From positions 62,001 through 126,000 of the forward strand of contig NZ_AVCS01000006.1 of assembly GCF_000498495.1 (NCBI RefSeq): a DNA stretch of 64,000 nucleotides, in the 5' to 3' direction. Position numbers and translations under genes: made by a program. The DNA comes from Flavobacterium enshiense DK69 (GTDB lineage Bacteria > Bacteroidota > Bacteroidia > Flavobacteriales > Flavobacteriaceae). The stretch's first letter is position 1. Each line of letters starts with the position of its first letter. The notes below the pieces were generated by a model, which did no database searches, was not told where the DNA came from, and saw only the letters and a list, made by a program, of their open reading frames with translations. Of the stretch, positions 1,017-34,318 are shown piece after piece.

Positions 1017-2051
1017 ATGTCTAAAAAACAACATATTGCTGTAATAAGGCTCTCAGCCATGGGTGATGTCGCAATGACGGTTCCTGTGTTGAGAGCCTTA
1101 GTTTTTCAGTATCCTGAGGTTGAAGTGACCGTTGTGTCCCGACCTTTTTTTAAACCTTTTTTTGACGGAATTCCGAATGTCCGTTTCTTCGCTGTCGATT
1201 TGAATAAACGCCATAAAGGATTTCCGGGTTTGCTGCGGTTGTATTCCGATTTGCGTGAATTGAAGGTTGACGCCATAGCCGATCTGCATAACGTACTGCG
1301 TTCCAAAGTAGTCCGTAACCTTTTTATGCTGAGCGGAAAAAAAACAGCAGCGACTGATAAAGGCCGTGCCGATAAAAAAGCGCTTACCCGTTTCAAAGAC
1401 AAAATTTTCACACCGGTCAAGCCGATGGTCGAACGCCACGCCGATACTTTCGCAGAATTGGGTTTTCCGATTGATTTATCACATCCGCAGTTTCCGTCAA
1501 AAACCGTTTTGTCTGAAGACATCGTTTCGGTTATCGGGAATAAGGATAATGAATGGGTTGGAATCGCTCCTTTTGCCCAATACGAAAGCAAAGTATATCC
1601 GATTGATTTAATGCAGCAGCTAATTGATGGATTGTCTAGAGAAACCAATCTAAACGTAATGTTGTTCGGGGGAGGAGAGAAGGAAATTCAGCTGTTAACA
1701 CAATTGAAGGCTAACCATTCTAACGTAACTGTCCTGGCAGGAAAATTGAAATTCAAACAGGAACTGGAAGTGATTTCCAATTTAGACCTAATGCTTTCGA
1801 TGGATTCCGGAAATGCGCACATTGCTGCCATGCTGGGCGTAAAAGTGATTACGCTTTGGGGTGCCACACACCCTTATGCAGGATTTAAACCGTTTGGTCA
1901 ACCAGATGATTTCTGCCTTACTTCCGACAGGGAAAAATATCCGCTCTTGCCAACATCCGTTTACGGAAACAAAAAAGTGGAAGGATATGAAGATGCTATG
2001 AGAACTATATCACCGGAAACGGTTTTAGCCAAAATAAAAAAGGAGCTTTAG
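1017..2051 (+). CDS. Glycosyltransferase family 9 (ADP-heptose:LPS heptosyltransferase-like)
   Basis: A 344-residue GT-B fold enzyme expected to transfer a sugar, probably heptose, from an NDP donor to the LPS core at the inner face of the cytoplasmic membrane. Family marks seen are the N-terminal IRLSAMGDVAMTVPVLRAL, corresponding to the RxxxxGDxxxxxP motif of WaaC/WaaF/GT9 proteins, and in the C-terminal half MDSGNAHIAAMLG followed by LWGATHPYAGFKP, which form the donor-binding site. Length is normal for GT9. It follows the DUF4254 gene after 12 bases. A 12-bp terminator hairpin overlaps its stop codon, so the unit ends here. The exact sugar and acceptor cannot be read from the sequence. 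Confidence 0.86.
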   Translation: MSKKQHIAVIRLSAMGDVAMTVPVLRALVFQYPEVEVTVVSRPFFKPFFDGIPNVRFFAVDLNKRHKGFPGLLRLYSDLRELKVDAIADLHNVLRSKVVRNLFMLSGKKTAATDKGRADKKALTRFKDKIFTPVKPMVERHADTFAELGFPIDLSHPQFPSKTVLSEDIVSVIGNKDNEWVGIAPFAQYESKVYPIDLMQQLIDGLSRETNLNVMLFGGGEKEIQLLTQLKANHSNVTVLAGKLKFKQELEVISNLDLMLSMDSGNAHIAAMLGVKVITLWGATHPYAGFKPFGQPDDFCLTSDREKYPLLPTSVYGNKKVEGYEDAMRTISPETVLAKIKKEL

Positions 2052-2069
2052 ATAAAGCTCCTTTTGTTT
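2038..2069. terminator. Rho-independent terminator, bidirectional
   Basis: The arms 2038-2049 (AAAAGGAGCTTT) and 2054-2065 (AAAGCTCCTTTT) pair perfectly over 12 bp with a 4-base loop and are followed by T-rich DNA. The stop codon of the glycosyltransferase lies inside the hairpin. The hairpin sits between two convergent genes and has an A-tract on the left arm, so it can serve both strands. Confidence 0.85.
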
Positions 2070-2076
2070 TTATATT

Positions 2077-3129
2077 TTATACATCGTCAAAATCGATATA
2101 AATTTCATCTGTGGTAGGGTGCGCCTGACAGGTTAAAATCAATCCTTCTTCGATTTCCGCATCGGTCAGGATGGAGTTCTTTTTCATTTCCGCGGCACCT
2201 TTTGTTATTCTTGCTAAACAACTGCTGCAGATTCCGCCCTGACAAGAGTACGGCGCATCAATTCCTTGTTTTAATGCTGCTTCCAAAAGGGTTTGCTTCT
2301 GTGCCATTTCGAAGGTGGTTTCTTCGTCATCGACCATTATGGTAATCTTAGTGTGTCCTCCTAAAGTATTCTCAATTTTGGTTTCGGTTGTTGAAGTTGA
2401 GAATAACTCGAATTTAATGTTTTTCTCTGGTACATTGTTTTCCTTCAGGGTATTGCTCACATTGGCAATCATGTCTTCGGGACCACATAAATAAAATTTC
2501 GAAAACTCTTTTTCGGCATGTTTGTTATTCAGTACAAAATTCACCACTGACTTATCAACCCTTCCAAACAAAGCATCTTCCACATTTACTTTAGTGTATA
2601 CAAACTGAATGAAAAGACGTCCCACATATTTTAACTGCAAATCGTGAAGCTGATCGTAAAAAATAGTTTGCTCCGGATTTTTATTGCCGTAAGTCAACAC
2701 AAACGTACTTTTTGGTTCATTTTCCAATACCGATTTTATGATGGACATGATCGGAGTGATACCGCTTCCTGCCGCAAAAGCAGCATAATTTTTCTGAGCG
2801 TCGGCTTTAGGTTCAAAGGTAAATTTTCCTTCCGGCGAACCCACTTCGATTACGTCGCCTTGTTTTAAGCGGTTGTTGGCAAATGATGAAAAAACACCGT
2901 CGGCAACCTCTTTAATGGTAACACGTAAGTCGCCACTGTTCGGGGAAGAACACAACGAATAAGCTCTTCGTATTTCAGTTCCGTCCAACGTTAATTTTAA
3001 AGTAACGTATTGACCTGCGATAAAGCTATAGTTTGATTTTAATTCTTCAGGAACATTGAAGGAAACAGAGACGGCACTTGGTGTTTCTCGGTAAACTTCT
3101 TTTATCACTAGTTTATAAAATGTCGACAT
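2077..3129 (-). CDS. PaaE-like NAD(P)H ferredoxin reductase with C-terminal 2Fe-2S domain
   Basis: A 350-residue flavin/iron-sulfur reductase that passes electrons from NAD(P)H through FAD to a plant-type [2Fe-2S] centre. Domains in order are an FAD-binding barrel with RRAYSLCSSP (about residues 53-62), an NAD-binding domain with GSGITPIMSI and FYLCGPEDM, and a C-terminal ferredoxin domain with C296, C301, C304 and C334 in the CX4CX2C...C pattern. The architecture matches PaaE of phenylacetyl-CoA epoxidase and HCP reductases, but no paaABCD genes are nearby, so its partner oxygenase is unknown. It is a monocistronic unit with a TATTTTTG box 20 bases upstream of the ATG. Confidence 0.85.
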   Translation of the reverse strand: MSTFYKLVIKEVYRETPSAVSVSFNVPEELKSNYSFIAGQYVTLKLTLDGTEIRRAYSLCSSPNSGDLRVTIKEVADGVFSSFANNRLKQGDVIEVGSPEGKFTFEPKADAQKNYAAFAAGSGITPIMSIIKSVLENEPKSTFVLTYGNKNPEQTIFYDQLHDLQLKYVGRLFIQFVYTKVNVEDALFGRVDKSVVNFVLNNKHAEKEFSKFYLCGPEDMIANVSNTLKENNVPEKNIKFELFSTSTTETKIENTLGGHTKITIMVDDEETTFEMAQKQTLLEAALKQGIDAPYSCQGGICSSCLARITKGAAEMKKNSILTDAEIEEGLILTCQAHPTTDEIYIDFDDV

Positions 3130-3149
3130 GGTATAGTTTGTTTAAGTAG

Positions 3150-3157
3150 CAAAAATA
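3150..3157 (-). promoter_or_regulatory. Bacteroidetes -7 box for the PaaE-like reductase
   Basis: On the minus strand the sequence is TATTTTTG, a full match to TAnnTTTG, 20 bases upstream of the start codon at 3129. No clear TTG -33 element is seen at the expected distance. Confidence 0.45.
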
Positions 3158-3231
3158 ACTATTCTAATTTTTTTAAATATGATAAAAATCAGAAATTAAT
3201 ACCAAAGTAATTTATGTATAAGAAATTTATG

Positions 3232-3239
3232 TATTTTTG
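3232..3239 (+). promoter_or_regulatory. Bacteroidetes -7 box for the PadR operon
   Basis: TATTTTTG lies 16 bases before the PadR ATG. A second TAATTTTG at 3247-3254 also fits TAnnTTTG but ends one base before the ATG, so it is too close to act as the -7 box of this gene. No good -33 TTG is present. Confidence 0.45.
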
Positions 3240-3255
3240 ATAAAAATAATTTTGC

Positions 3256-3591
3256 ATGAAAAATTCGCAGTTGTATAAAGGCAGTCTGAATACCATAATC
3301 ATGAAGCTCCTGGAAGAAAAAGGGCGCATGTATGGGTATGAGATTACACAGAAAGTGAAGGAAATCACCAAAGGGGAGCTCAAAATAACAGAAGGCGCGT
3401 TGTATCCGGCGCTTCATAAGTTGGAAGCAGAAGGTTTTTTGGAAGTAGAGGTGGAAAAAGTCGACAACAGGCTTCGCAAATATTATAAACTTACCGAAAG
3501 CGGAGAAAAAGAAACGGTGAACCGATTATCGGAACTGGAAGAATTTATCCGGAACATGCAGGTATTAGTGAACCCTAAATTAAGTTATTAA
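3256..3591 (+). CDS. PadR family transcriptional regulator
   Basis: A 111-residue winged-helix repressor of the PadR type. The visible family pattern is GSLNTIIMKLLEEKGRMYGYEI at residues 9-30, then TEGALYPALHKLEAEG, whose LYPALH recognition segment is diagnostic, and the wing with the RLRKYYKLTESG core. It is the first gene of a run of four same-strand genes (membrane protein, DUF5687 permease, ABC ATPase). The next gene starts three bases after its stop codon. PadR repressors usually control an adjacent transporter or membrane protein and often themselves, so autoregulation of this operon is likely. The ligand is unknown. Confidence 0.9.
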   Translation: MKNSQLYKGSLNTIIMKLLEEKGRMYGYEITQKVKEITKGELKITEGALYPALHKLEAEGFLEVEVEKVDNRLRKYYKLTESGEKETVNRLSELEEFIRNMQVLVNPKLSY

Positions 3592-3594
3592 AAG

Positions 3595-4284
3595 ATGAAA
3601 CTTACTTCAGAACAAATAGAACGCCTTTACCAATTCACCCGTCAGCATTATGTGGAATATTACGACTTACAGACCGAACTGACGGATCATTTAGCCAACG
3701 GCATTGAAGCGCAATGGGAACAGAATCCGAACTTGTCCTTCGAGGAAGCGTTGCAGTTTGAATTCAAAAAGTTTGGCATATTCGGTTTTATGAATGTGGT
3801 GGAACAACGACAGGCAGCACTGACCAAAAAATACCATGATTTGGTCTGGCAACACTTTAAGGATTTCTATAAACTTCCGAAAATTATCGGGAGCTTGGTC
3901 GCGATAGTACTTCTAAAATTATTTTTGGAAACCATTTCTTTTTCGGAAGAACTGATCATAACCTCTTTTGTTGCAATACTGCTAACATTCTTCGGAGGAA
4001 TGGTTTACATGAAGTACAAAAACCGGAGAAAGACGAGAGTTTCCGGTAAAAAATGGCTTTTCGAAGAAATTGTTTTCGGTAAAGGTTCTTTTGTGGGATA
4101 CATTTATGTTGCAATTTGTGTTTTTAATAAAATCCCAAGGCATTTCGAAAACGATTATACGATTTGGATTTTCAGCATAATGATTGTGTTGATGGTGCTT
4201 TTGGAATATATCATGCTTGTAAAAATTCCCAAAAAATCCGAAGAATATCTCATCACCACCTATCCGGAATATAAATTAACATAG
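3595..4284 (+). CDS. Membrane protein encoded with PadR (HAAS-like N-terminal region)
   Basis: A 229-residue protein with a soluble, helical, acidic N-terminal region of about 90 residues (LTSEQIERLYQFTRQHYV... ELTDHLANGIEAQW), followed by about four hydrophobic segments near residues 95-115, 120-138, 160-178 and 185-207. The N-terminal helix bundle before a membrane domain resembles the small domains that sit next to PadR regulators in many bacteria (HAAS-type); this is a pattern-level resemblance, not a proven match. It starts three bases after padR, so translation is probably coupled. The role is unknown; it may be a membrane partner or signal input for the exporter downstream. Confidence 0.72.
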   Translation: MKLTSEQIERLYQFTRQHYVEYYDLQTELTDHLANGIEAQWEQNPNLSFEEALQFEFKKFGIFGFMNVVEQRQAALTKKYHDLVWQHFKDFYKLPKIIGSLVAIVLLKLFLETISFSEELIITSFVAILLTFFGGMVYMKYKNRRKTRVSGKKWLFEEIVFGKGSFVGYIYVAICVFNKIPRHFENDYTIWIFSIMIVLMVLLEYIMLVKIPKKSEEYLITTYPEYKLT

Positions 4285-4343
4285 GAAATGTAACATTTTT
4301 GTTTTTTTGCATCTAACTTCTTACAATTAATAAGTAATAGAGT

Positions 4344-5813
4344 ATGTTCAAACATTTTATCACACTGGAATGGAAATCGTTTTTGCGATCGGCTTCCCTT
4401 TCCGCCAATCTCGTTCTTAAAATTGTGATGATTTTGGGGGCGGTATATTTCGGAAGTTGCTTCCTGGTTCTTGGTGCGGCTTCTTATTATATGCTAGAGG
4501 ATTATGGTTTGCCTCCATTAGAAACCGTCAACAAATACCTGATTTATTATTTCTTTTTTGATTTGGTCATTCGGTTCTTTATGCAGAAAACACCGGTCAT
4601 GAATATTAAACCACTTTTATATATCAATATCAAAAGGAAAAGCATCGTAAATTTTGCTTTAGGAAAAACAATATTGTCTTTTTTTAACCTTATTCATGGT
4701 TTCTTTTTCATTCCTTTTTCTATTGTTCTTTTAAGGGAAGGGTTTGATGTTGCAGGTGTGTTTTGCTGGTTACTGACCATGTTTACGATGGTTATGCTGA
4801 ATAATTTCATAAATATCCTGATTGATAAAAAAGACAGTGTTTTTTATGTGGCTCTTGTCGTTTTTGCAGGTTTGGGAATCTTACAGTTGTATAGTGTTTT
4901 TGATATTACACAGTATACTGCCCAGTTTTTCACTGGGATTTATGAAACGAAATGGATGATGATTTTGCCATTGATTCTTTTTTCCGGAGTGTATGTTGTG
5001 ACCTTTAATTTCTTTAGAAAAAACCTGTATCTCGATCAGGGACTTTCCGTAAAAGAAGACATTGCGAAATCCGAAGAGTTAACCTGGCTGAATCAGTTTG
5101 GGACTTTGGGGACGTTCCTTAAAAATGATATCAAACTTTTAAAAAGAAACAAGCGCTCCCGGACCACTGTTTTTATGAGTGTTATTTTCATTTTCTACGG
5201 ATTATTGTTTTTCAGTAGTGGAATTGAAGCGTATCAAAATCCGATGATGCAGGTTTTTGCGGGTATTTTTGTTTCGGGAGGTTTCCTTTTTACCTTCGGA
5301 CAATTTGTGCCGAGCTGGGACAGTTCCTATTATCCATTAATGATGAGCCAAAACGTTCAATATAAGGACTATCTGAATTCAAAATGGTGTTTGATTGTGA
5401 TTGCCACGGTCATTTCAACCCTTTTGGCTTCTTTTTACCTGTATTTCGGTTGGGAGACTTATTTACTGATTGTGGTAGGAGCTATCTATAACATTGGCGT
5501 AAACGCGCATTTGGTGCTTTTAGGAGGAGCATATGTTAAAACACCCATTGATTTGGCTTCAGCTAAAGGTGCTTTTGGTAACCGTCAGGGATTCAATGTG
5601 CAGACTCTCCTGATTTCCATTCCGAAATTACTTTTGCCAATGGCATTGTACGCAGTTGGAAAGGCCTTTTTCGGTTTTGAAATTGGACTGCTTTTTGTGG
5701 CATTGGCGGGCATCACAGGATTTGCCTTCCGTAACAAAATGTTTCGAATTATCGAAAATGTTTACAAAAAGGAAAAATACAAAACGATAGCGGCTTATAC
5801 TCAAAAAGACTAA
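4344..5813 (+). CDS. DUF5687 family membrane protein (ABC-2-like permease)
   Basis: A 489-residue integral membrane protein with about twelve hydrophobic segments. It starts with FKHFITLEWKSFLRSASLSAN, the amphipathic N-terminus usual for the DUF5687 family, and has a soluble loop near residues 230-265 (KEDIAKSEELTWLNQFG... LLKRNKRSRTT). DUF5687 proteins are Bacteroidetes permease components of ABC transporters. The ABC ATPase gene follows after 19 bases and the PadR unit precedes it by about 60 bases, so it should form the membrane channel of an exporter. The substrate cannot be deduced. Confidence 0.8.
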   Translation: MFKHFITLEWKSFLRSASLSANLVLKIVMILGAVYFGSCFLVLGAASYYMLEDYGLPPLETVNKYLIYYFFFDLVIRFFMQKTPVMNIKPLLYINIKRKSIVNFALGKTILSFFNLIHGFFFIPFSIVLLREGFDVAGVFCWLLTMFTMVMLNNFINILIDKKDSVFYVALVVFAGLGILQLYSVFDITQYTAQFFTGIYETKWMMILPLILFSGVYVVTFNFFRKNLYLDQGLSVKEDIAKSEELTWLNQFGTLGTFLKNDIKLLKRNKRSRTTVFMSVIFIFYGLLFFSSGIEAYQNPMMQVFAGIFVSGGFLFTFGQFVPSWDSSYYPLMMSQNVQYKDYLNSKWCLIVIATVISTLLASFYLYFGWETYLLIVVGAIYNIGVNAHLVLLGGAYVKTPIDLASAKGAFGNRQGFNVQTLLISIPKLLLPMALYAVGKAFFGFEIGLLFVALAGITGFAFRNKMFRIIENVYKKEKYKTIAAYTQKD

Positions 5814-26640: not shown

Positions 26641-27390
26641 ATGAAAATCTTCAAGATTCTTTTCTGGACACTTTGGCGCATTTGGTTTTACATATTAGTT
26701 GTAGTGCCGATCCTTGTGATGTTCCCTTTTCTGTTTTTATCAATTCTCTCTGAAAAAACGTATCCTCAGTTTTTTGTGCTGGCCCGTATTTGGGCAAGAA
26801 TTATCCTTTACGGAATGGGATTCTATTATGAGCTGGAAGAAGATTACAAAATGGAAGAGGGCAAAAGTTATGTGCTTGTGGCAAATCATACATCGATGAT
26901 GGATATAATGCTTATGCTGCTTTTGGTGAAGAAACATCCATTTGTTTTTGTTGGTAAGAAGGAGTTGGTAAATCTGCCCATTTTTGGATTTTTCTACAAA
27001 CGTACCTGCATTTTAGTTGACCGAAACAGTTCTAAAAGTCGTTTCGCTGTTTTCGAACGGGCACAAAAAAGAATCAATCAGGGGTTGAGCATCTGTATTT
27101 TTCCCGAAGGAGGCGTTCCGGAAGACGAGAGCATTATTTTGGATGAGTTTAAAGATGGTGCTTTTCGTATTGCGATTGAACACCAATTGCCGATTTTGCC
27201 TATGACTTTCGGCGATGTGAAAAAGCGTTTTTCATTCACTTTTTTCAGTGGTTGTCCCGGGAAAATGAGAATCAAAATCCATCAACCGGTTGAGACGTCC
27301 GGTAAAAAAATGGAAGAGAAAAGAGAACTTAAGGAAAAGGTACGTAATGTTATTTTATCACAGCTTTTAAAATTTGAAAACGCAAAATAA
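26641..27390 (+). CDS. plsC: 1-acyl-sn-glycerol-3-phosphate acyltransferase (PlsC type)
   Basis: A 249-residue membrane-associated acyltransferase that makes phosphatidic acid from lysophosphatidic acid. An N-terminal membrane helix (residues 12-36) is followed by the catalytic NHTSMMD motif with His83 and Asp88 and by FPEGGVPE at 154-161, the two family-defining blocks. An ornithine-lipid acyltransferase role cannot be excluded from motifs alone. It is a single-gene unit bounded by its own promoter and a terminator. Confidence 0.9.
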   Translation: MKIFKILFWTLWRIWFYILVVVPILVMFPFLFLSILSEKTYPQFFVLARIWARIILYGMGFYYELEEDYKMEEGKSYVLVANHTSMMDIMLMLLLVKKHPFVFVGKKELVNLPIFGFFYKRTCILVDRNSSKSRFAVFERAQKRINQGLSICIFPEGGVPEDESIILDEFKDGAFRIAIEHQLPILPMTFGDVKKRFSFTFFSGCPGKMRIKIHQPVETSGKKMEEKRELKEKVRNVILSQLLKFENAK

Positions 27391-27399
27391 TAGAAATAA

Positions 27400-27431
27400 A
27401 AAAGCACTCTAACCCAAAAGAGTGCTTTTTA
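27400..27431. terminator. Terminator after plsC (bidirectional)
   Basis: AAAAGCACTCT (27400-27410) pairs with AGAGTGCTTTT (27419-27429) around an 8-base loop, followed by Ts. The A-tract on the other side allows it to serve the convergent barrel gene that ends at 27485. The 50 bases that follow contain several CTTAACT repeats of unknown meaning. Confidence 0.85.
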
Positions 27432-27484: not shown

Positions 27485-29278
27485 TTAAAAACTATAACTT
27501 ATTCCGCTGTAAATGCCTATGAAATAAGGCTTGAAATTTCCAGCGTTATTGTCGTATGTATTGATTTGGTATTTTAACATGGGTTCTACGTTTGCATGTA
27601 GATTTCTCATGAAACTGTAATGTACTCCCAATCCGATATTGGTACTGAAATGTAATTTGTTCAGATTATTTGCTTCGCCAATGATAAGGTTGGTATCGGA
27701 TGAAACTACGGAAACTTTGTTGTCGTTCAGCAATAAGGAACTTACTCCTCCGATTAGGTCAATCCCGAATTTTCTGTCTAAAATTTTGTAGGAAAGCTCA
27801 ACAGGAACTTCAACATAATTTATTTTGTGGTTGATATTTCCGCTGTAACGGGTAGTCACAATGCCATTTTCGTTATAGGCAATATTCTTCGGACTAGGGT
27901 TTTCAATAACGAGTACGGATCCGTTCCCGTTTTCATTTACAAGCTCTAAGCCGGCACCTTCTGCGGAACGGTAGTAGGTGACATCATTGGTGCTGTATTC
28001 AATATTGAGTACATTCACACCTGTACGCACTGCCCATTTTTTATTCAGTTCATATTTTAATCCGGCACCATAACTCATGCTGGTTTGATAACTTTTGGAA
28101 TTTTCGTTGAATTTAGCATCCAAAGAAGATCCCGAACCGTTCAGATTCATATAGATTGGCGAAAAATTGGTGCTTACGATCCAGCTTGATTTTTTTCCTT
28201 TCTCGTCTTCGGCATCATTTTCGTCCGTTTCTTTCTTAGCCTTAGTCTTTGTGCCTTCAGCAATCTTATTTGGTTTTATTGCTAAAGAATCTGGTTTTAT
28301 GGTTGTATTTTCTTTAAAGCTGATGCTTGATTTGTTAGATATCCCTGATTTTGATTTAGTATCGGCAGCCACTACTTTTACGGTCTCTTTTGTTTCAGTT
28401 ACTGTTTTTATTGGTACAACATTATGTGTTATGGCTACTTTCTTCTGAACGTATTTGCTGCCTCCTTCATAAGCTACTTTGGAAGTATTCACATAAGGGT
28501 CGAACTCGTCTTCATTGTCATTCACATCAGTTGTGTCTGTTTCTGGAAAAATATTGCTTAGTGAACGATTTTCGTTGGCGGCAACTAAAACATTTCTTTC
28601 AATAGGGTTTGGGTTTATATCCCGTTCAATTGTACTGTTTTTATCAGTCGAAGCTAAGCTGTGTTTTTTAGCAGTTGAATTTTTTGATGAATTTAAAATT
28701 AAAGCCGAATTGGTGCTGTTTTGAGGTAGGGTTTCAGAAACTGCAATTCTGTTTTTCTCAGACTTATCTTTTATTTTTGAAAAAGAATGATTTGTGTTGT
28801 TTGATTGTTCATTTGAAGAAAATTCTCCGGCACCACCATTAATGTTTTTTCGATTTTCATTAAAATGCGTTTTGCTTAGATTTTTAGAATTGGTTTTGCC
28901 AGCAATTACTTCATTATGAACAACAGTATTGTTTTTATTTGCTATATTTTCGAAAGAGTCAGATCTAACAATAGTATTTTTCGAAATATTTCTTTTGGTA
29001 TTTGTTTCGTTTCCAAGTGTTGACTTGTTGTCCGCCTCCTTGTCTGCTGAAGTCAAAATGCCAAAAGGTCCTGCTATAAAGGTTGTGGCAAGAGAAAACC
29101 CAATTAAGAAGAAGGCAGCATAACTGCATAATCTCAGCCATGGGGAAACAGGCATGATTTCTTTTTCACCAGTATTGATGCTGGACTGAATGTTCTCCCA
29201 TATGCTGTCGGAAGGAGTCACTTCAAAGTCCTTGAATTTTTCTTTAAAAAGGCGGTCTATGTTATTTAATTCGCTCAT
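27485..29278 (-). CDS. Trans-envelope anti-sigma-like / outer membrane beta-barrel fusion protein
   Basis: A 597-residue protein encoded directly after an ECF sigma factor and overlapping it by four bases (ATGA). Residues 1-46 are a cytoplasmic segment (NNIDRLFKEKFKDFEVTPSD, SIWENIQSSI) of the kind found in Bacteroidetes anti-sigma proteins. A membrane helix follows at about 47-70. Residues 75-360 are a low-complexity Asn/Ser/Thr/Lys-rich linker. The last ~235 residues show alternating beta-strand patterns of an outer-membrane barrel (WIVSTNFSPIYMNL, YGAGLKYELNKKWAVRTGVN, VEVPVELSYKI) and end in Phe. I read it as an inner-membrane anti-sigma anchored to an outer-membrane barrel; the fusion is visible, the function is inference. 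Confidence 0.8.
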   Translation of the reverse strand: MSELNNIDRLFKEKFKDFEVTPSDSIWENIQSSINTGEKEIMPVSPWLRLCSYAAFFLIGFSLATTFIAGPFGILTSADKEADNKSTLGNETNTKRNISKNTIVRSDSFENIANKNNTVVHNEVIAGKTNSKNLSKTHFNENRKNINGGAGEFSSNEQSNNTNHSFSKIKDKSEKNRIAVSETLPQNSTNSALILNSSKNSTAKKHSLASTDKNSTIERDINPNPIERNVLVAANENRSLSNIFPETDTTDVNDNEDEFDPYVNTSKVAYEGGSKYVQKKVAITHNVVPIKTVTETKETVKVVAADTKSKSGISNKSSISFKENTTIKPDSLAIKPNKIAEGTKTKAKKETDENDAEDEKGKKSSWIVSTNFSPIYMNLNGSGSSLDAKFNENSKSYQTSMSYGAGLKYELNKKWAVRTGVNVLNIEYSTNDVTYYRSAEGAGLELVNENGNGSVLVIENPSPKNIAYNENGIVTTRYSGNINHKINYVEVPVELSYKILDRKFGIDLIGGVSSLLLNDNKVSVVSSDTNLIIGEANNLNKLHFSTNIGLGVHYSFMRNLHANVEPMLKYQINTYDNNAGNFKPYFIGIYSGISYSF

Positions 29279-29820
29279 TTTATGGATGAGAATTTTTTAT
29301 TTGCGTGCTGAGATTCAATTTTGTCTTTTAATATCATTCGGGCCCGGGCCAGATTAGATTTGGATGTACCGACGGTTATCTTAAGCATTTCGGCTATTTC
29401 TTTGTGTGAATAATCGTCAACTACATAAAGATTGAAAACTAAACGGTATCTGTCGGGTAACTTCTGTATTATAGAAACCAAAAAGTCCATGGTGAGTGAA
29501 TCTTCTTCTATCTCCACATCGGGCGAATCCGGAATGTTCTCATGTACAATTTCAAAAATGCCTTCTGTACGGTATTTTTGCAAAATATGATTAATCAGTA
29601 CTCTTTTTGCCCAACCTTCAAAAGAACCTTTAAATTCAAACTTGTTTATTTTTTCGAAAATCAATATAAATCCGTCCTGTAAATTATCTTCGGCTTCGGT
29701 GTAATTTCTGGAATATTTTAAACTCACACCGAACAGTTTTGGGGAAAGAAGTCTGTACAACTGCTCTTGAGCGGCCGTATCCTTCCTTTGGCAATCATAT
29801 ATGATTTGTTCTAACCCCAA
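29275..29820 (-). CDS. ECF-type RNA polymerase sigma factor
   Basis: A 181-residue sigma-70 family member of the extracytoplasmic-function class. Region 2 is KYSRNYTEAEDNLQDGFILI with FEGWAKRVLINHIL; region 4 is LPDRYRLVFNLYVVDDYSHK followed by EIAEMLKITVGTSKSNLARAR, the helix-turn-helix that reads the -35. The start is a TTG at 29820; no better start is visible. It lies 14 bases after the lipoprotein gene and overlaps the anti-sigma-like barrel gene by four bases, so the three are one operon. Control by the barrel protein is likely. Confidence 0.9.
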   Translation of the reverse strand: MGLEQIIYDCQRKDTAAQEQLYRLLSPKLFGVSLKYSRNYTEAEDNLQDGFILIFEKINKFEFKGSFEGWAKRVLINHILQKYRTEGIFEIVHENIPDSPDVEIEEDSLTMDFLVSIIQKLPDRYRLVFNLYVVDDYSHKEIAEMLKITVGTSKSNLARARMILKDKIESQHANKKFSSIK

Positions 29821-29834
29821 TGTTATACTGTGTT

Positions 29835-30251
29835 TTATTCGACAAGAATGTTATAAGTCAAGAACAAATCGACCCCGTTACTGTTTTTTCCTTTCCAAAA
29901 TTTTAATGTGTATTCGCCTGGTTTGTCCAGATTAAATTTTAAATCTTGAGTTGTCATATTTCCGTTTTGTACAGAAGCACAATCACTATCTGAATGCTTG
30001 TAAACAGTTGATTCAACCGCAATGGTCCTTATGGAGCCTTCTTTTTCGAAATAAATTTTATTAAAGGTGTGACATTCCGTTGGCTGAACGAATTTTATTT
30101 TGATAGTATATTCTTTGTTTATTTTAAAATTAGTGGGTAATTCCACTTCGCTCACCGGCAACAATTCATACACCGTGGTTTCTGTTTCCGACTCTTTGCT
30201 GCAGGATAAATAAAGGAAAGGAATCAGAATCAATAAAAAAACATTTCTCAT
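29835..30251 (-). CDS. Small lipoprotein of unknown function, first gene of the sigma operon
   Basis: A 138-residue lipoprotein. The signal peptide ends in FLYLSC with Cys17 as the lipid site, followed by SKESETETT. The mature part is beta-rich (TNFKINKEYTIKIKFVQPTE, EYTLKFWKGKNSNGVDLFL) and has two Cys (in PTECHTF and DSDCASV) that could form a disulfide. I do not recognise the family. It lies 14 bases before the sigma factor gene on the same strand, which suggests that it belongs to the same envelope-signalling unit, possibly as a sensor or target; this is a guess from position. Confidence 0.75.
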   Translation of the reverse strand: MRNVFLLILIPFLYLSCSKESETETTVYELLPVSEVELPTNFKINKEYTIKIKFVQPTECHTFNKIYFEKEGSIRTIAVESTVYKHSDSDCASVQNGNMTTQDLKFNLDKPGEYTLKFWKGKNSNGVDLFLTYNILVE

Positions 30252-30311
30252 TATATAGGTTGTTGTTGCTAATAAGATGAAATAGAATTCAAAAGGTTGC
30301 GTATGAAAACC

Positions 30312-30337
30312 AAAAATCCCGAAAATTTTCGGGATTC
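30312..30337 (-). terminator. Terminator of recA
   Basis: The 22-base palindrome AATCCCGAAAA/TTTTCGGGATT (30315-30336) is followed on the minus strand by five Ts. It lies directly after the recA stop codon. Confidence 0.85.
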
Positions 30338-30343
30338 TTTATT

Positions 30344-31348: not shown

Positions 31349-31627
31349 TGTCTATAATTTTTGCTAAAAATAATGTTTTTTTTTAAGTTTCAAATAAGAT
31401 GTTATCAACAGTTAAGTTAAAATTCCTTTCGTACGGCTTTTGGCCTGTGATGATTTTTTCAGAAATGAATTTATTGGGAAACAACTATGTAAGCGGCTAG
31501 AATTATTGTAAAATTTATCTTATACAATTATGATTTTCAGTTCTTTTTGTTTTCTTAAAAAAAATATTACAAAAGCGTGTAGTTTTGTTATTTTCATATG
31601 TATATTCGCGCAAAAAAATATTTATTT

Positions 31628-34318
31628 ATGAAAAAAATCTTACTAACTGGAGCTTTTCTGATGTCAGCTTTGGTTTATTCACAAAATTTAGATTCCACAT
31701 TTGGTACCAATGGCGGTGTTGTGGTTTCACAGTTCTCTACATCTAAAACTAGCGATTTGGTTGCCGGGGCGGCCTTACAATCAGATGGGAAGATGGTTTA
31801 TGTTGGAAGATCAGTCGCTTTTTCAAGCTTTTCGTTTATTGCCAGAACTGATGCTTCAGGTGTTTTGGATACGTCATTTAATACTTTCGGATTTAGGACA
31901 ATCAGCGGAAGTGGTTTTGAAGCTGTAGCCATTCAATCAGATGGAAAAATCCTGGCAGTTGGTCAGTCCAACATTTACCGATTTAATACGGACGGTAGTT
32001 TTGACAACACCTTTTCCGGGGATGGGATTTATTCGGTTACAATTGCCGGTTACAGCCCTTCTTTAAAGTCGATAGCCTTACAGTCTAGCGGTAAAATAGT
32101 TTTGGGAGGATTTGTGTCTAATGGCGGCGATAACGATTTCGCTTTGATTCGATTAAATGCTGACGGAAGTGCTGATACTGCTTTTGATTTTGATGGAATT
32201 GCAACATTGGCTGTTGGTTCTGAGGATGATGAAGCGGTTACGTTAGCAATTCAGGGTGATGGTAAAATCGTATTAGGCGGCCAGTCGTTTAATGGAAGTG
32301 ATTATGATTTCGCCGTAGCCCGATTTAATTCGATAGGAACTTTAGACACGTCTTTCGGTACAAACGGAACTACTGTATCTCCTTTCGGATCAGCCTTGGA
32401 TTTGGGCCGCGCACTTGATATTCAAAGTGATGGTAAGATCTTAATGTTGGGAGCCAGTAACAGTACGCTATCAATAGCAAGATATAATACTAATGGTCAG
32501 TTAGACACCTCTTTCGGCACCGACGGGCTGCTTTTAACAACAACTCCATTAACAGTAGGAAATCCGACTAATTCATTTTATTTTTCAAAACCGGTTGTTA
32601 AGTATCTTTCTGACGGTAAAATTTTGGTTTCGGGAACGTCTAGTAATGATTACGCGTTGTTTAGGTTTAATGCCGACGGAAGCGTAGATAACTCTTTTGG
32701 CTCTAACGGAACCACTTTATACAATCTTGAAACTTTGGATCGACAAGGGTTTTTATTCGTAAAATCAGACGGAAAAATCATATGTGGCGGTTCAAGTCTT
32801 GATGGAGCAACATCTGATTTTCAAAGAGGGGTTCAACTTCAGTTCACAAGTAACGGTCTTTTTGAATCTTTAACAAGTTTCAATCTTAAACAAGGGGCAG
32901 ATCGGGGTATAGCTGTAATTGAACAGTCAAGTGGGAAGACTGTAGTTTTAGGCCAATCCAAAGAGGGAGCAGGATTCAATAACACTCTGGTTCGTTACAA
33001 CACTAATGGTAGTTTAGACACAACTTTTGGAGTTAACGGGATGCTGAACCTTGGAATTTCAAATGTGTATAAGATGATACAACAACCTGATGGAAAAATT
33101 ATACTGATCACTACCGGAGCGGATTTGATTCGTTTGAATGCAGACGGTCAAGCCGATTTGTCATTCGGTGTGAACAGTATTACGAATATGAAGGCAGACT
33201 CTAATAATATTGTGAGTTTTATCGATGCAATTGAGATTGGTCCGGATAATAAAATTTATGTAGCTTTCGACTATGACAGTTCAGCGACTACCAATGGGAC
33301 TTTGTTTGATTTTGGGCTTTTGCGTTTGAATAGCAACGGAACTTTGGATACTACTTTTGGGAATAATGGTAAGGTAAATACCCGTTTTAACTTTTACTCG
33401 GCAGCAGAAATGAATTTCCCGGCAGATCTGTACATTCAAGCAGATGGTAAAATTATTTTGACCGGACCGCTTTATATTCCTCTAAACGGTTCGTATGTAG
33501 GGACTACAGAATTTACCAACGGGATAGTGCGTTATAATACGGATGGGACAATCGATACCACTTTCGGTACAAACGGTAAGGTGACAACGCAAATCGGGAC
33601 TTACAATCACCCTTTTAAAATCGAGGGAACACTAAATAATAAGTTCATTATCAATTCAGGAATATCTACATCTAATTTGCATAGTCTGACACGATATAAT
33701 AGCAACGGTAGTGTGGATACTTCTTTTGGTGTAAACGGATCAGTTGCTGATCAACCCGGGCAGATTTACAGCACGATGGTTGTTCAGTCGGACGGGAAAA
33801 TTCTAAAAGGAGGGCGTTCTGGCAATCAGTTCTCTATCAGCCGTTATAATGCTGATGGTTCTCCAGATACTTCTTTCGGAACGTCCGGAATACTTTCTAC
33901 TCCAATTTATTATAATTCTTCAATTGCCGATTTAATATTGTTGCAAAGTGGAAAATTGCTCGCGACAGGCTATGCATTTAACGGTTCTAATGATGTACTG
34001 GCACAGGTAAGGTATACTGACATAACGCTTGGGACTCTCAATTTTGAAGGGAACAACAACGTTTTATTGGTATATCCAAATCCTATAAAACAAGCGGCTA
34101 CTTTTGAATACACTTTAGAAAATAACGAAACTATTTCCATTGATATCGTAGATTTACAAGGAAAAGTAGTAAAGTCCATTTTGAAAAATAAAGAACAATC
34201 GGTTGGAAATCACAAACAAAGCATTGATTTATCCGAAGGGTTTGCTGCTGGAATTTATATTCTTAATTTCTCTTCTGCTAAAGGGAATCAGTCAGTTAGA
34301 ATAATGAAGGTTGATTAA
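31628..34318 (+). CDS. Secreted delta-60-repeat protein with T9SS sorting domain
   Basis: About 896 residues. I chose the ATG at 31628 because it gives a clean signal peptide (KKILLTGAFLMSALVYSQ); an ATG at 31598 would add ten residues. The body is a string of delta-60 repeats of the form LDTSFGTNG with intervening QSDGKI(V/L)xxG strands; I count at least thirteen DxxF(G) units, which probably build a beta-propeller. The C-terminal ~85 residues are a type A T9SS sorting domain (VYPNPIKQAATFEY... AAGIYILNF). It is exported by T9SS and held on or released from the surface. The ligand or substrate is unknown. Confidence 0.88.
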   Translation: MKKILLTGAFLMSALVYSQNLDSTFGTNGGVVVSQFSTSKTSDLVAGAALQSDGKMVYVGRSVAFSSFSFIARTDASGVLDTSFNTFGFRTISGSGFEAVAIQSDGKILAVGQSNIYRFNTDGSFDNTFSGDGIYSVTIAGYSPSLKSIALQSSGKIVLGGFVSNGGDNDFALIRLNADGSADTAFDFDGIATLAVGSEDDEAVTLAIQGDGKIVLGGQSFNGSDYDFAVARFNSIGTLDTSFGTNGTTVSPFGSALDLGRALDIQSDGKILMLGASNSTLSIARYNTNGQLDTSFGTDGLLLTTTPLTVGNPTNSFYFSKPVVKYLSDGKILVSGTSSNDYALFRFNADGSVDNSFGSNGTTLYNLETLDRQGFLFVKSDGKIICGGSSLDGATSDFQRGVQLQFTSNGLFESLTSFNLKQGADRGIAVIEQSSGKTVVLGQSKEGAGFNNTLVRYNTNGSLDTTFGVNGMLNLGISNVYKMIQQPDGKIILITTGADLIRLNADGQADLSFGVNSITNMKADSNNIVSFIDAIEIGPDNKIYVAFDYDSSATTNGTLFDFGLLRLNSNGTLDTTFGNNGKVNTRFNFYSAAEMNFPADLYIQADGKIILTGPLYIPLNGSYVGTTEFTNGIVRYNTDGTIDTTFGTNGKVTTQIGTYNHPFKIEGTLNNKFIINSGISTSNLHSLTRYNSNGSVDTSFGVNGSVADQPGQIYSTMVVQSDGKILKGGRSGNQFSISRYNADGSPDTSFGTSGILSTPIYYNSSIADLILLQSGKLLATGYAFNGSNDVLAQVRYTDITLGTLNFEGNNNVLLVYPNPIKQAATFEYTLENNETISIDIVDLQGKVVKSILKNKEQSVGNHKQSIDLSEGFAAGIYILNFSSAKGNQSVRIMKVD

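What the first reader, a model, noticed from the sequence alone, without database searches (positions are those of the whole stretch)
27485..30251. Lipoprotein - ECF sigma - trans-envelope barrel operon
Seen in sequence: three minus-strand genes with a 14-base gap and an ATGA overlap. The last protein starts with an anti-sigma-like cytoplasmic segment, has one membrane helix near residues 47-70, then about 285 residues of low-complexity linker, then an outer-membrane beta-barrel domain ending in Phe. Inference: a single chain could connect an outer membrane event directly to sigma release without a separate TonB receptor or protease cascade, and the lipoprotein may be a sensor or regulated product. 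The linker is long enough to cross the periplasm.
Basis: partly seen in the sequence, partly recalled or inferred. Interest (0 to 1): 0.7.

Follow-up and report, generated by a model that had tools for sequence, protein, structure and literature searches.

The report
Envelope-spanning sigma-factor brake in Flavobacterium
A Flavobacterium operon encodes a gene switch (a sigma factor), a brake protein whose single chain appears to reach from the cytoplasm to the outer membrane, and a small lipoprotein; this kind of brake is already known from gut Bacteroides, but here it comes with a sharply conserved promoter that offers a short, testable list of genes it may control.

Summary
Window 27485-30251 (minus) is lipoprotein, ECF sigma, then a 597-residue protein: N-terminal helices, one membrane helix (46-69), about 270 disordered residues and an OmpA-like barrel ending in Phe. 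[quoted passage not shown] Homology was tested: window-derived profiles find Dma-type proteins beside NigD genes and a natural sigma-barrel fusion elsewhere in Bacteroidota, and the sigma factors share a clade (98/96).

New here: (1) the cassette lies behind recA in Flavobacteriaceae (lipoprotein in 78, sigma in 79 of 80 named loci); (2) a sharp putative promoter, ACGCAACC-N15-(C)ATCT, precedes it in 77 of 78 testable loci, with one base changed in the last; (3) elsewhere the motif often lies just ahead of small-lipoprotein genes (7 of 8 close intergenic targets, but only 2 of the 7 in genomes with the orthologous operon and none in the own genome); (4) the lipoprotein's predicted fold weakly resembles NigD C-terminal domains, without a sequence link. 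The lipoprotein looks more like output than sensor. The slack, unconserved linker argues against direct mechanical signalling. Sigma binding, signal and release step are untested.

The parts
30312..30339 (-). terminator-like hairpin behind recA, separating recA from the operon
   Evidence: 12 pairs, T-rich tail; 5 such sites in the region, 2.9 expected
30275..30301 (-). putative sigma promoter CGCAACC-N15-CATCT ahead of the operon (an A precedes the C)
   Evidence: only match of the pattern in the 64-kb window, 0.02 expected; same element in 77 of 78 recA-operon gaps of named loci, AGCAACC in the last
29835..30251 (-). small lipoprotein, 138 aa, predicted beta sandwich
   Evidence: present in 78 of 80 named loci
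29275..29820 (-). ECF sigma factor, 181 aa, TTG start
   Evidence: Pfam Sigma70_r2 and r4_2; tree
27485..29278 (-). Dma-type protein, 597 aa, putative envelope-spanning anti-sigma factor
29144..29278 (-). residues 1-45: cytoplasmic helices, putative sigma-binding segment (F11, P22, W27 invariant in 76 of 76)
29072..29143 (-). residues 46-69: membrane helix, N-terminus inside by charge
   Evidence: mean net charge +3.28 in the 20 residues before and -1.37 after
28256..29071 (-). residues 70-341: disordered linker rich in N, S, K, T
   Evidence: pLDDT under 50; composition, length range and low identity
27488..28183 (-). residues 366-597: OmpA-like beta barrel, terminal Phe
   Evidence: Foldseek best match OmpA 9fzc_A, E 2e-7, TM 0.66 on the target
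27399..27430 (-). terminator-like hairpin behind the operon

Best explanation
A flavobacterial member of the Dma/Das kind. At rest the cytoplasmic N-terminus of the 597-aa protein holds the ECF sigma factor at the inner membrane (inferred from the published family); the same chain crosses the periplasm as a slack disordered tether and is anchored in the outer membrane by an OmpA-like barrel (predicted). Disturbance of the outer membrane or of barrel assembly removes or cuts the brake (inferred, untested). Freed sigma then reads ACGCAACC-N15-ATCT promoters (comparative evidence, no biochemistry), raising its own operon, lipoprotein first, and a few other genes, among which small lipoproteins recur in relatives. 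The lipoprotein is most likely an output of the switch, perhaps a counterpart of NigD in Bacteroides, rather than its sensor.
For: Architecture and conservation. Homology to Dma-type loci: 6 of the 14 NigD places were read, and in 2 of the 6 (L216, L217) NigD is divergent from a sigma-Dma pair that window-derived profiles detect (N-terminal model 8.8e-5, barrel model 1.3e-5, E within one locus); in G432 one 547-aa ORF (L214) carries sigma (1.2e-35) and barrel (9.9e-11), and the same barrel was found in the whole-genome search at 2.6e-11. Profile-profile comparison aligns the barrels, probability 94%, E 8.8e-8. Sigma clade 98/96 with the sigmas of L214, L216 and L217. Promoter in 77 of 78 gaps, 0 expected in simple shuffles. 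Motif excess over the reversed control in genomes with a Dma match: 40 hits against 6 in 19 genomes (7 of the 40 are operon promoters), against 10 and 8 in 21 without. Published: inhibition of sigma by Dma and induction of the own operon when Dma is lost (PMC13088901; PMC9308784).
Against: No binding, localisation or expression datum here. The N-terminus has no Pfam anti-sigma match and hhalign aligned only the barrel. No ECF21 model was at hand. The promoter was not found in the three Bacteroidota Dma loci read. Of the 7 close lipoprotein targets only 2 are in genomes with the orthologous operon, 4 are in genomes with a more distant Dma and 1 in a genome without a Dma match (G004); none is in the own genome. 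One motif-bearing gene is shared by only 3 of 24 genomes. Seven of the 19 Dma genomes have the motif at most once.
Confidence: 0.75

Rival explanations
1. Direct trans-envelope signalling: an outer-membrane event pulls on or rearranges the single chain and releases sigma without proteolysis.
For: One continuous chain with both ends conserved and no break in the frame of 76 orthologs.
Against: Linker identity 15%, length 151 to 346 residues; at about 0.35 nm per residue (recalled) even the shortest exceeds 50 nm against a periplasm of 20-30 nm (recalled), so it is slack.
Confidence: 0.12
2. The lipoprotein is the sensor or a feedback partner of the barrel, not merely an output.
For: Gene order is fixed with sigma and dma in 78 of 80 loci; an acidic stretch after the lipobox in 52 of 61 resembles lipoprotein export signals (PMC5080379 passages), so it may face outward like the barrel loops.
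Against: At this locus L126 keeps sigma and dma without it, and G005 keeps it without sigma and dma; in G026 it has moved behind dma; other lipoprotein genes carry like motifs.
Confidence: 0.2
3. The conserved GCAACC/ATCT element serves recA, its terminator or another regulator rather than this sigma factor.
For: The element lies behind recA in the named loci, so shared place alone could conserve it.
Against: It lies beyond the recA terminator; in G026 it heads sigma where no recA was found within 7.5 kb; its genome-wide excess is seen in genomes with a Dma match; in G005, which lost sigma and dma at this place, the ATCT part is gone (one case).
Confidence: 0.07
4. The chain is cut constitutively behind the membrane helix, so that a short anti-sigma factor and a free barrel act as two proteins.
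For: Short proteins with a similar N-terminal segment and no barrel exist beside ECF genes, one in this genome (L226) and in many phylum genomes as N-terminal-only matches.
Against: No A-x-A follows the helix in 76 of 76 orthologs, 1.3 expected (a crude test); no ortholog of the 76 is split.
Confidence: 0.08

Closest known systems
Dma1/Das1, Dma2/Das2 and Dma3 of Bacteroides thetaiotaomicron (PMC13088901; the 2024 PNAS paper on Dma1 is known here only as cited)
   Same: N-terminal segment, membrane helix, long disordered tether, C-terminal barrel, adjacent ECF sigma; for Dma2 a three-gene operon; own operon among the genes raised when Dma is lost
   Different: Located behind recA; first gene is a small lipoprotein with no NigD Pfam match; conserved GCAACC-N15-ATCT element, not found in the three Bacteroidota loci read; link to vesicles unknown
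Sigma/anti-sigma pair M0N98_03761-03760 of Phocaeicola vulgatus and EcfO with its anti-sigma partner of B. fragilis (PMC9308784; the 2013 EcfO paper was not held)
   Same: Anti-sigma predicted to span the periplasm with an outer-membrane barrel, encoded behind its sigma gene; NigD orthologs among genes induced by the toxin
   Different: Signal and regulon of the Flavobacterium pair are unknown
NigD-like lipoproteins
   Same: Small envelope lipoprotein linked to a Dma pair; first four chains in the structural second look are Bacteroidales proteins, two of them NigD by profile
   Different: 138 aa against 221-245 aa of the six NigD genes read; no Pfam NigD match in 61 members; sequence profiles do not align beyond the lipobox

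Membership tests
Dma (dual membrane-spanning anti-sigma) | N-terminal sigma-binding domain | tested here: inconclusive
   F11, P22, W27 invariant in 76 of 76; window-derived N-terminal model finds the Dma-type protein beside NigD in L216 at 8.8e-5 within one locus; hhalign did not align this part; binding not testable
Dma (dual membrane-spanning anti-sigma) | single membrane helix with the N-terminus inside | tested here: met
   helix 46-69; charge +3.28 before, -1.37 after; by prediction
Dma (dual membrane-spanning anti-sigma) | long intrinsically disordered tether | tested here: met
   70-341 at pLDDT under 50; 151-346 residues in orthologs
Dma (dual membrane-spanning anti-sigma) | C-terminal outer-membrane beta barrel | tested here: met
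   predicted barrel, OmpA best match, homologous to the barrels of L214, L216, L217
Dma (dual membrane-spanning anti-sigma) | adjacent cognate ECF sigma gene | tested here: met
   sigma in 79 of 80 named loci, the exception cut by the contig end
Dma (dual membrane-spanning anti-sigma) | inhibits the sigma factor; affects vesicles or PULs | not testable with these tools
   needs mutants
ECF21 sigma factors | score to the ECF21 group model | not testable with these tools
   no ECF21 model held; indirect support from the tree: clade 98/96 with the Bacteroidota Dma-linked sigmas, holding 1 (L226) of the 10 other own-genome ECFs; some branches long
NigD-like lipoproteins (for the 138-aa protein) | match to the NigD_C family | tested here: not met
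   0 of 61 members match NigD_C at 0.01; none in the own genome at E 1 or better
NigD-like lipoproteins (for the 138-aa protein) | NigD fold | tested here: inconclusive
   Z 6.9, 6.2, 6.1, 5.5 for the first four chains, under the Z 8 below which a match may be only a common arrangement; 3qwn and 3k0y are NigD by profile, 5bmt and 3nqi were not matched, and the other three NigD structures are not among the 50 rows shown
FecR-type or zinc-finger anti-sigma factors | FecR or zf-HC2 type Pfam domain | tested here: not met
   only OMP_b-brl found in the window protein at E 1 or better; neither is among the 5 families matched by the 76 orthologs

The most novel reading that the evidence does not exclude
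The switch is a lipoprotein-homeostasis circuit of the flavobacterial outer membrane: an OmpA-like barrel on a slack tether reports whether barrels or surface lipoproteins are being assembled or exported, loss of proper assembly removes the brake, and the freed sigma restocks the surface with small NigD-fold lipoproteins from GCAACC/ATCT promoters. Sensing by assembly state, rather than by tension or ligand binding, would then be the general logic of the Dma family.
Probability: 0.15. Interest if true: 0.72.

Novelty: new member of a known kind. Interest (0 to 1): 0.45.

Why it matters
It extends a recently described class of envelope-spanning sigma brakes, studied in gut Bacteroides, to a fixed locus of Flavobacteriaceae and supplies what can be tested at once: a sharp candidate promoter and a short target list. 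If the lipoprotein is a counterpart of NigD, envelope lipoproteins would be a common output of these switches across the phylum. The linker comparison also turns the open question of how the signal crosses the periplasm into a choice between tension and loss of the brake.

Tried and rejected
NigD membership of the lipoprotein by sequence: Pfam over 61 members, NigD_C in the own genome and hhalign all failed. Foldseek alone gave no lipoprotein match at E 0.001 or better; only the second look pointed to NigD.

The same promoter in Bacteroidota Dma loci: the pattern GCAAC-N13/18-NATC was not found ahead of sigma, NigD or the fusion in L214, L216, L217; a site with GCAAC and TATCT at shorter spacing lies ahead of NigD in L216 and was not counted.

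The 219-aa ACT-like gene as a general target: the motif stands at -122 to -126 in the own genome, G009 and G011 only, 3 of the 24 genomes with the gene (in G014 the locus is truncated and the gene start was not placed).

Own-genome motif hits: 6 for the first pattern with 1 reversed-pattern control, 7 for the second with 3 controls; 3 of 6 and 3 of 7 lie inside genes and were set aside. One intergenic site (L171, also L243) has no clear gene close by. None of the other own-genome targets is a lipoprotein.

Constitutive cleavage behind the membrane helix: no A-x-A in 76 of 76, a crude test. RNA families and repeats at the operon: nothing of note.

Literature on a flavobacterial case: searches (no paper). 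Listings were seen, and passages of PMC9723704, PMC7406223, PMC12596196, PMC12045153, PMC8999054 and PMC5080379; in what I saw none describes this operon or promoter. The F. psychrophilum start-site paper reports an ECF motif with a CGT -10 box, a different one. Supplements could not be read.
Full report
OBSERVATION. The three minus-strand genes are as described: lipoprotein 29835-30251, sigma 29275-29820 with a TTG start, and a 597-residue protein 27485-29278, with a 14-base gap and an ATGA overlap. The sigma factor matches Sigma70_r2 and r4_2; the third protein matches only OMP_b-brl, just under that family's cut-off. On 76 sequences AlphaFold2 gives helices 4-19 and 24-35, a membrane helix 46-69, disorder from about 70 to 341, a helix 342-358 and strands 366-596, which I read as eight (mean pLDDT 61, barrel blocks 70-96). 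Foldseek's best match is OmpA, E 2e-7, TM 0.66 on the target. The own genome has one copy.

CONSERVATION. Of 40 related genomes, own included, 19 match the protein at E 0.001 or better, one of them (G037) by the N-terminus only. A scan of named species genomes kept the best 80 of 438 relatives. In these, sigma is found in 79, lipoprotein in 78 and recA in 78, in the order recA, lipoprotein, sigma, Dma; a convergent plsC-like gene and trpS follow in most. L076 and L130 are cut by contig ends; L126 lacks the lipoprotein at this place. Median identity to the window is 47% for residues 1-45, 29% for the helix, 15% for the linker and 45% for the barrel; the linker segment runs from 151 to 346 residues. 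F11, P22, W27, W47 and the last Phe are invariant in 76 of 76. Net charge is +3.28 before and -1.37 after the helix, and no A-x-A follows it in 76. In the phylum 86 of 395 genomes match the 19-sequence profile at 1e-5; many of these are N-terminal-only matches, often in short ORFs, so the N-terminal module also exists without the barrel. One such short protein stands beside an ECF gene of this genome (L226).

WHAT IT IS. The same four-part architecture beside an ECF sigma gene is published as Dma/Das in Bacteroides thetaiotaomicron (PMC13088901: abstract, introduction, two results sections, discussion and part of the reference list read) and as an unusual anti-sigma factor in Phocaeicola vulgatus (PMC9308784: passages and one section). 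Homology was tested. NigD_C is found in 7 of 395 phylum genomes, 14 places. I read 6 of the 14: in 2 (L216, L217) the NigD gene is divergent from a sigma-Dma pair that the window-derived profiles detect, at 8.8e-5 with the N-terminal model and 1.3e-5 with the barrel model (E within one locus), and in 4 there is none. In G432 one 547-aa ORF (L214) carries sigma and barrel (1.2e-35 and 9.9e-11), as published for Dma3; the whole-genome search had found that barrel at 2.6e-11. hhalign aligns the barrels, probability 94%, E 8.8e-8, but not the N-termini. In a 30-row sigma tree the window's sigma, its orthologs, more distant flavobacterial Dma-linked sigmas and those of L214, L216 and L217 form a clade with 98/96 support; of the 10 other own-genome ECFs only L226 is inside. 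Some branches are long. No ECF21 model was at hand.

PROMOTER. Between recA and the lipoprotein lies ACGCAACC-N15-(C)ATCT. A script found CGCAACC-N13/16-NATC(T/C) in 74 of 78 gaps, 0 expected in simple shuffles; the spacer is 15 in 68 and 14 in 6. Three of the four misses were due to my gene boundaries and carry it; the fourth, L085, has AGCAACC. These loci are relatives, not independent samples, but much of the spacer and most of the gap drift freely. In the window it is the only match, 0.02 expected. In 40 genomes CGCAACC-N14/15-CATCT gave 50 hits and the reversed pattern 14. Split by Dma match: 40 hits against 6 controls in 19 genomes, 7 of the 40 being operon promoters; 10 against 8 in 21 genomes. 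Same genus only, hits minus controls: one-sided Mann-Whitney p 0.008, 16 against 9 genomes.

TARGETS. DNA was read for 32 of the 50 hits: 9 lie inside genes, 5 head the operon itself, 3 have no ORF of 60 aa within 200 nt, and 15 precede another gene, of which 7 are lipoproteins by eye; within 50 nt it is 7 of 8. Against a simple reading: only 2 of the 7 (L176, L199) are in genomes with the orthologous operon; 4 (L177, L183, L187, L196) are in genomes with only a more distant Dma, and 1 (L181) is in G004, which has no Dma match. They may answer to sister sigma factors. In the own genome four intergenic sites stand out: the operon, a run of three proteins that look secreted and have no Pfam match (L223), a 219-aa ACT-like gene and one without a clear gene; none of the last three is a lipoprotein gene. 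The 219-aa gene carries the site at the same place in G009 and G011 but in none of the other 21 genomes with the gene, one of them truncated. In G005 sigma and Dma are gone from this place, the lipoprotein remains and the ATCT element is lost. In G017 two tandem lipoprotein genes each have a site, one of them AGCAACC. In G026 the lipoprotein lies behind dma and the site is ahead of sigma.

LIPOPROTEIN. 138 aa; lipobox Cys in 61 of 61, a further Cys pair in 58 of 61, and at least two acidic residues at +3 to +7 in 52 of 61, like the export signals reported for surface lipoproteins of the phylum (PMC5080379 passages); surface exposure is possible, not shown. The predicted beta sandwich (pLDDT 89) has no Foldseek match at 0.001. 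In the second look the first four of 997 chains are Bacteroidales proteins, Z 6.9 to 5.5, ahead of unrelated chains at 5.4 and below. Z under 8 may be only a common arrangement. Of the four, 3qwn and 3k0y match a NigD profile; 5bmt and 3nqi do not, and three further NigD structures are not among the rows shown. Sequence comparison with NigD fails. 'NigD counterpart' is an inference from place and fold.

MECHANISM. Supported by prediction and comparison: architecture, gene order, promoter, candidate targets. Taken from the published family: inhibition of sigma by Dma, and a rise of the own operon when Dma is lost. Inferred here: the tether is passive. At about 0.35 nm per residue even the shortest exceeds 50 nm against a periplasm of 20-30 nm (both recalled), and its sequence drifts freely, so the signal more likely acts through loss of assembly or cutting of the brake. 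In P. vulgatus the pair responds to an envelope-damaging toxin, which fits either release step. The lipoprotein is read as an output because it is first behind the promoter, because like sites precede other lipoprotein genes in relatives, and because at this locus either partner can be missing without the other (L126, G005).

VERDICT. A real, well conserved member of a kind already described, in a new branch, with a new putative promoter and target list.

Noticed in passing
L226 (own genome G000:C9:253833): A second ECF sigma gene of the same clade, followed by a 226-aa protein with a similar N-terminal motif and a membrane helix but no barrel: a short relative of the brake.
   Followed up: partly
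L221 (G005:C13:493500-499500): The lipoprotein gene is kept between recA and the plsC-like gene while sigma and dma are missing there, and the ATCT part of the promoter is gone: a natural knock-out.
   Followed up: partly
L214 (G432:C1:498000-506000), 3763-5406 (-): Natural fusion of an ECF sigma domain with a linker and barrel in one 547-aa ORF, like the published Dma3.
   Followed up: partly
L223 (own genome G000:C6:138500-146500), 1596-3963 (-): Three tandem proteins that look secreted, with GIGTTNP-like N-termini and no Pfam match, behind a GCAACC-N15-CATCT site: possible second target of the sigma factor.
   Followed up: partly
G015:C10:509696-509902 and G008:C2:769082-769287: Pairs of motif sites about 180 bases apart on the same strand in two genomes that have only a more distant Dma; the genes they serve were not worked out.
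   Followed up: no
window 31598-34318 (+): 906-aa DUF5122 beta-propeller protein with a type IX secretion tail (Por_Secre_tail), next to recA.
   Followed up: no
window 26641-27390 (+): PlsC-like acyltransferase convergent with dma; a conserved neighbour in most of the 80 named loci, with no evidence of a functional link.
   Followed up: no
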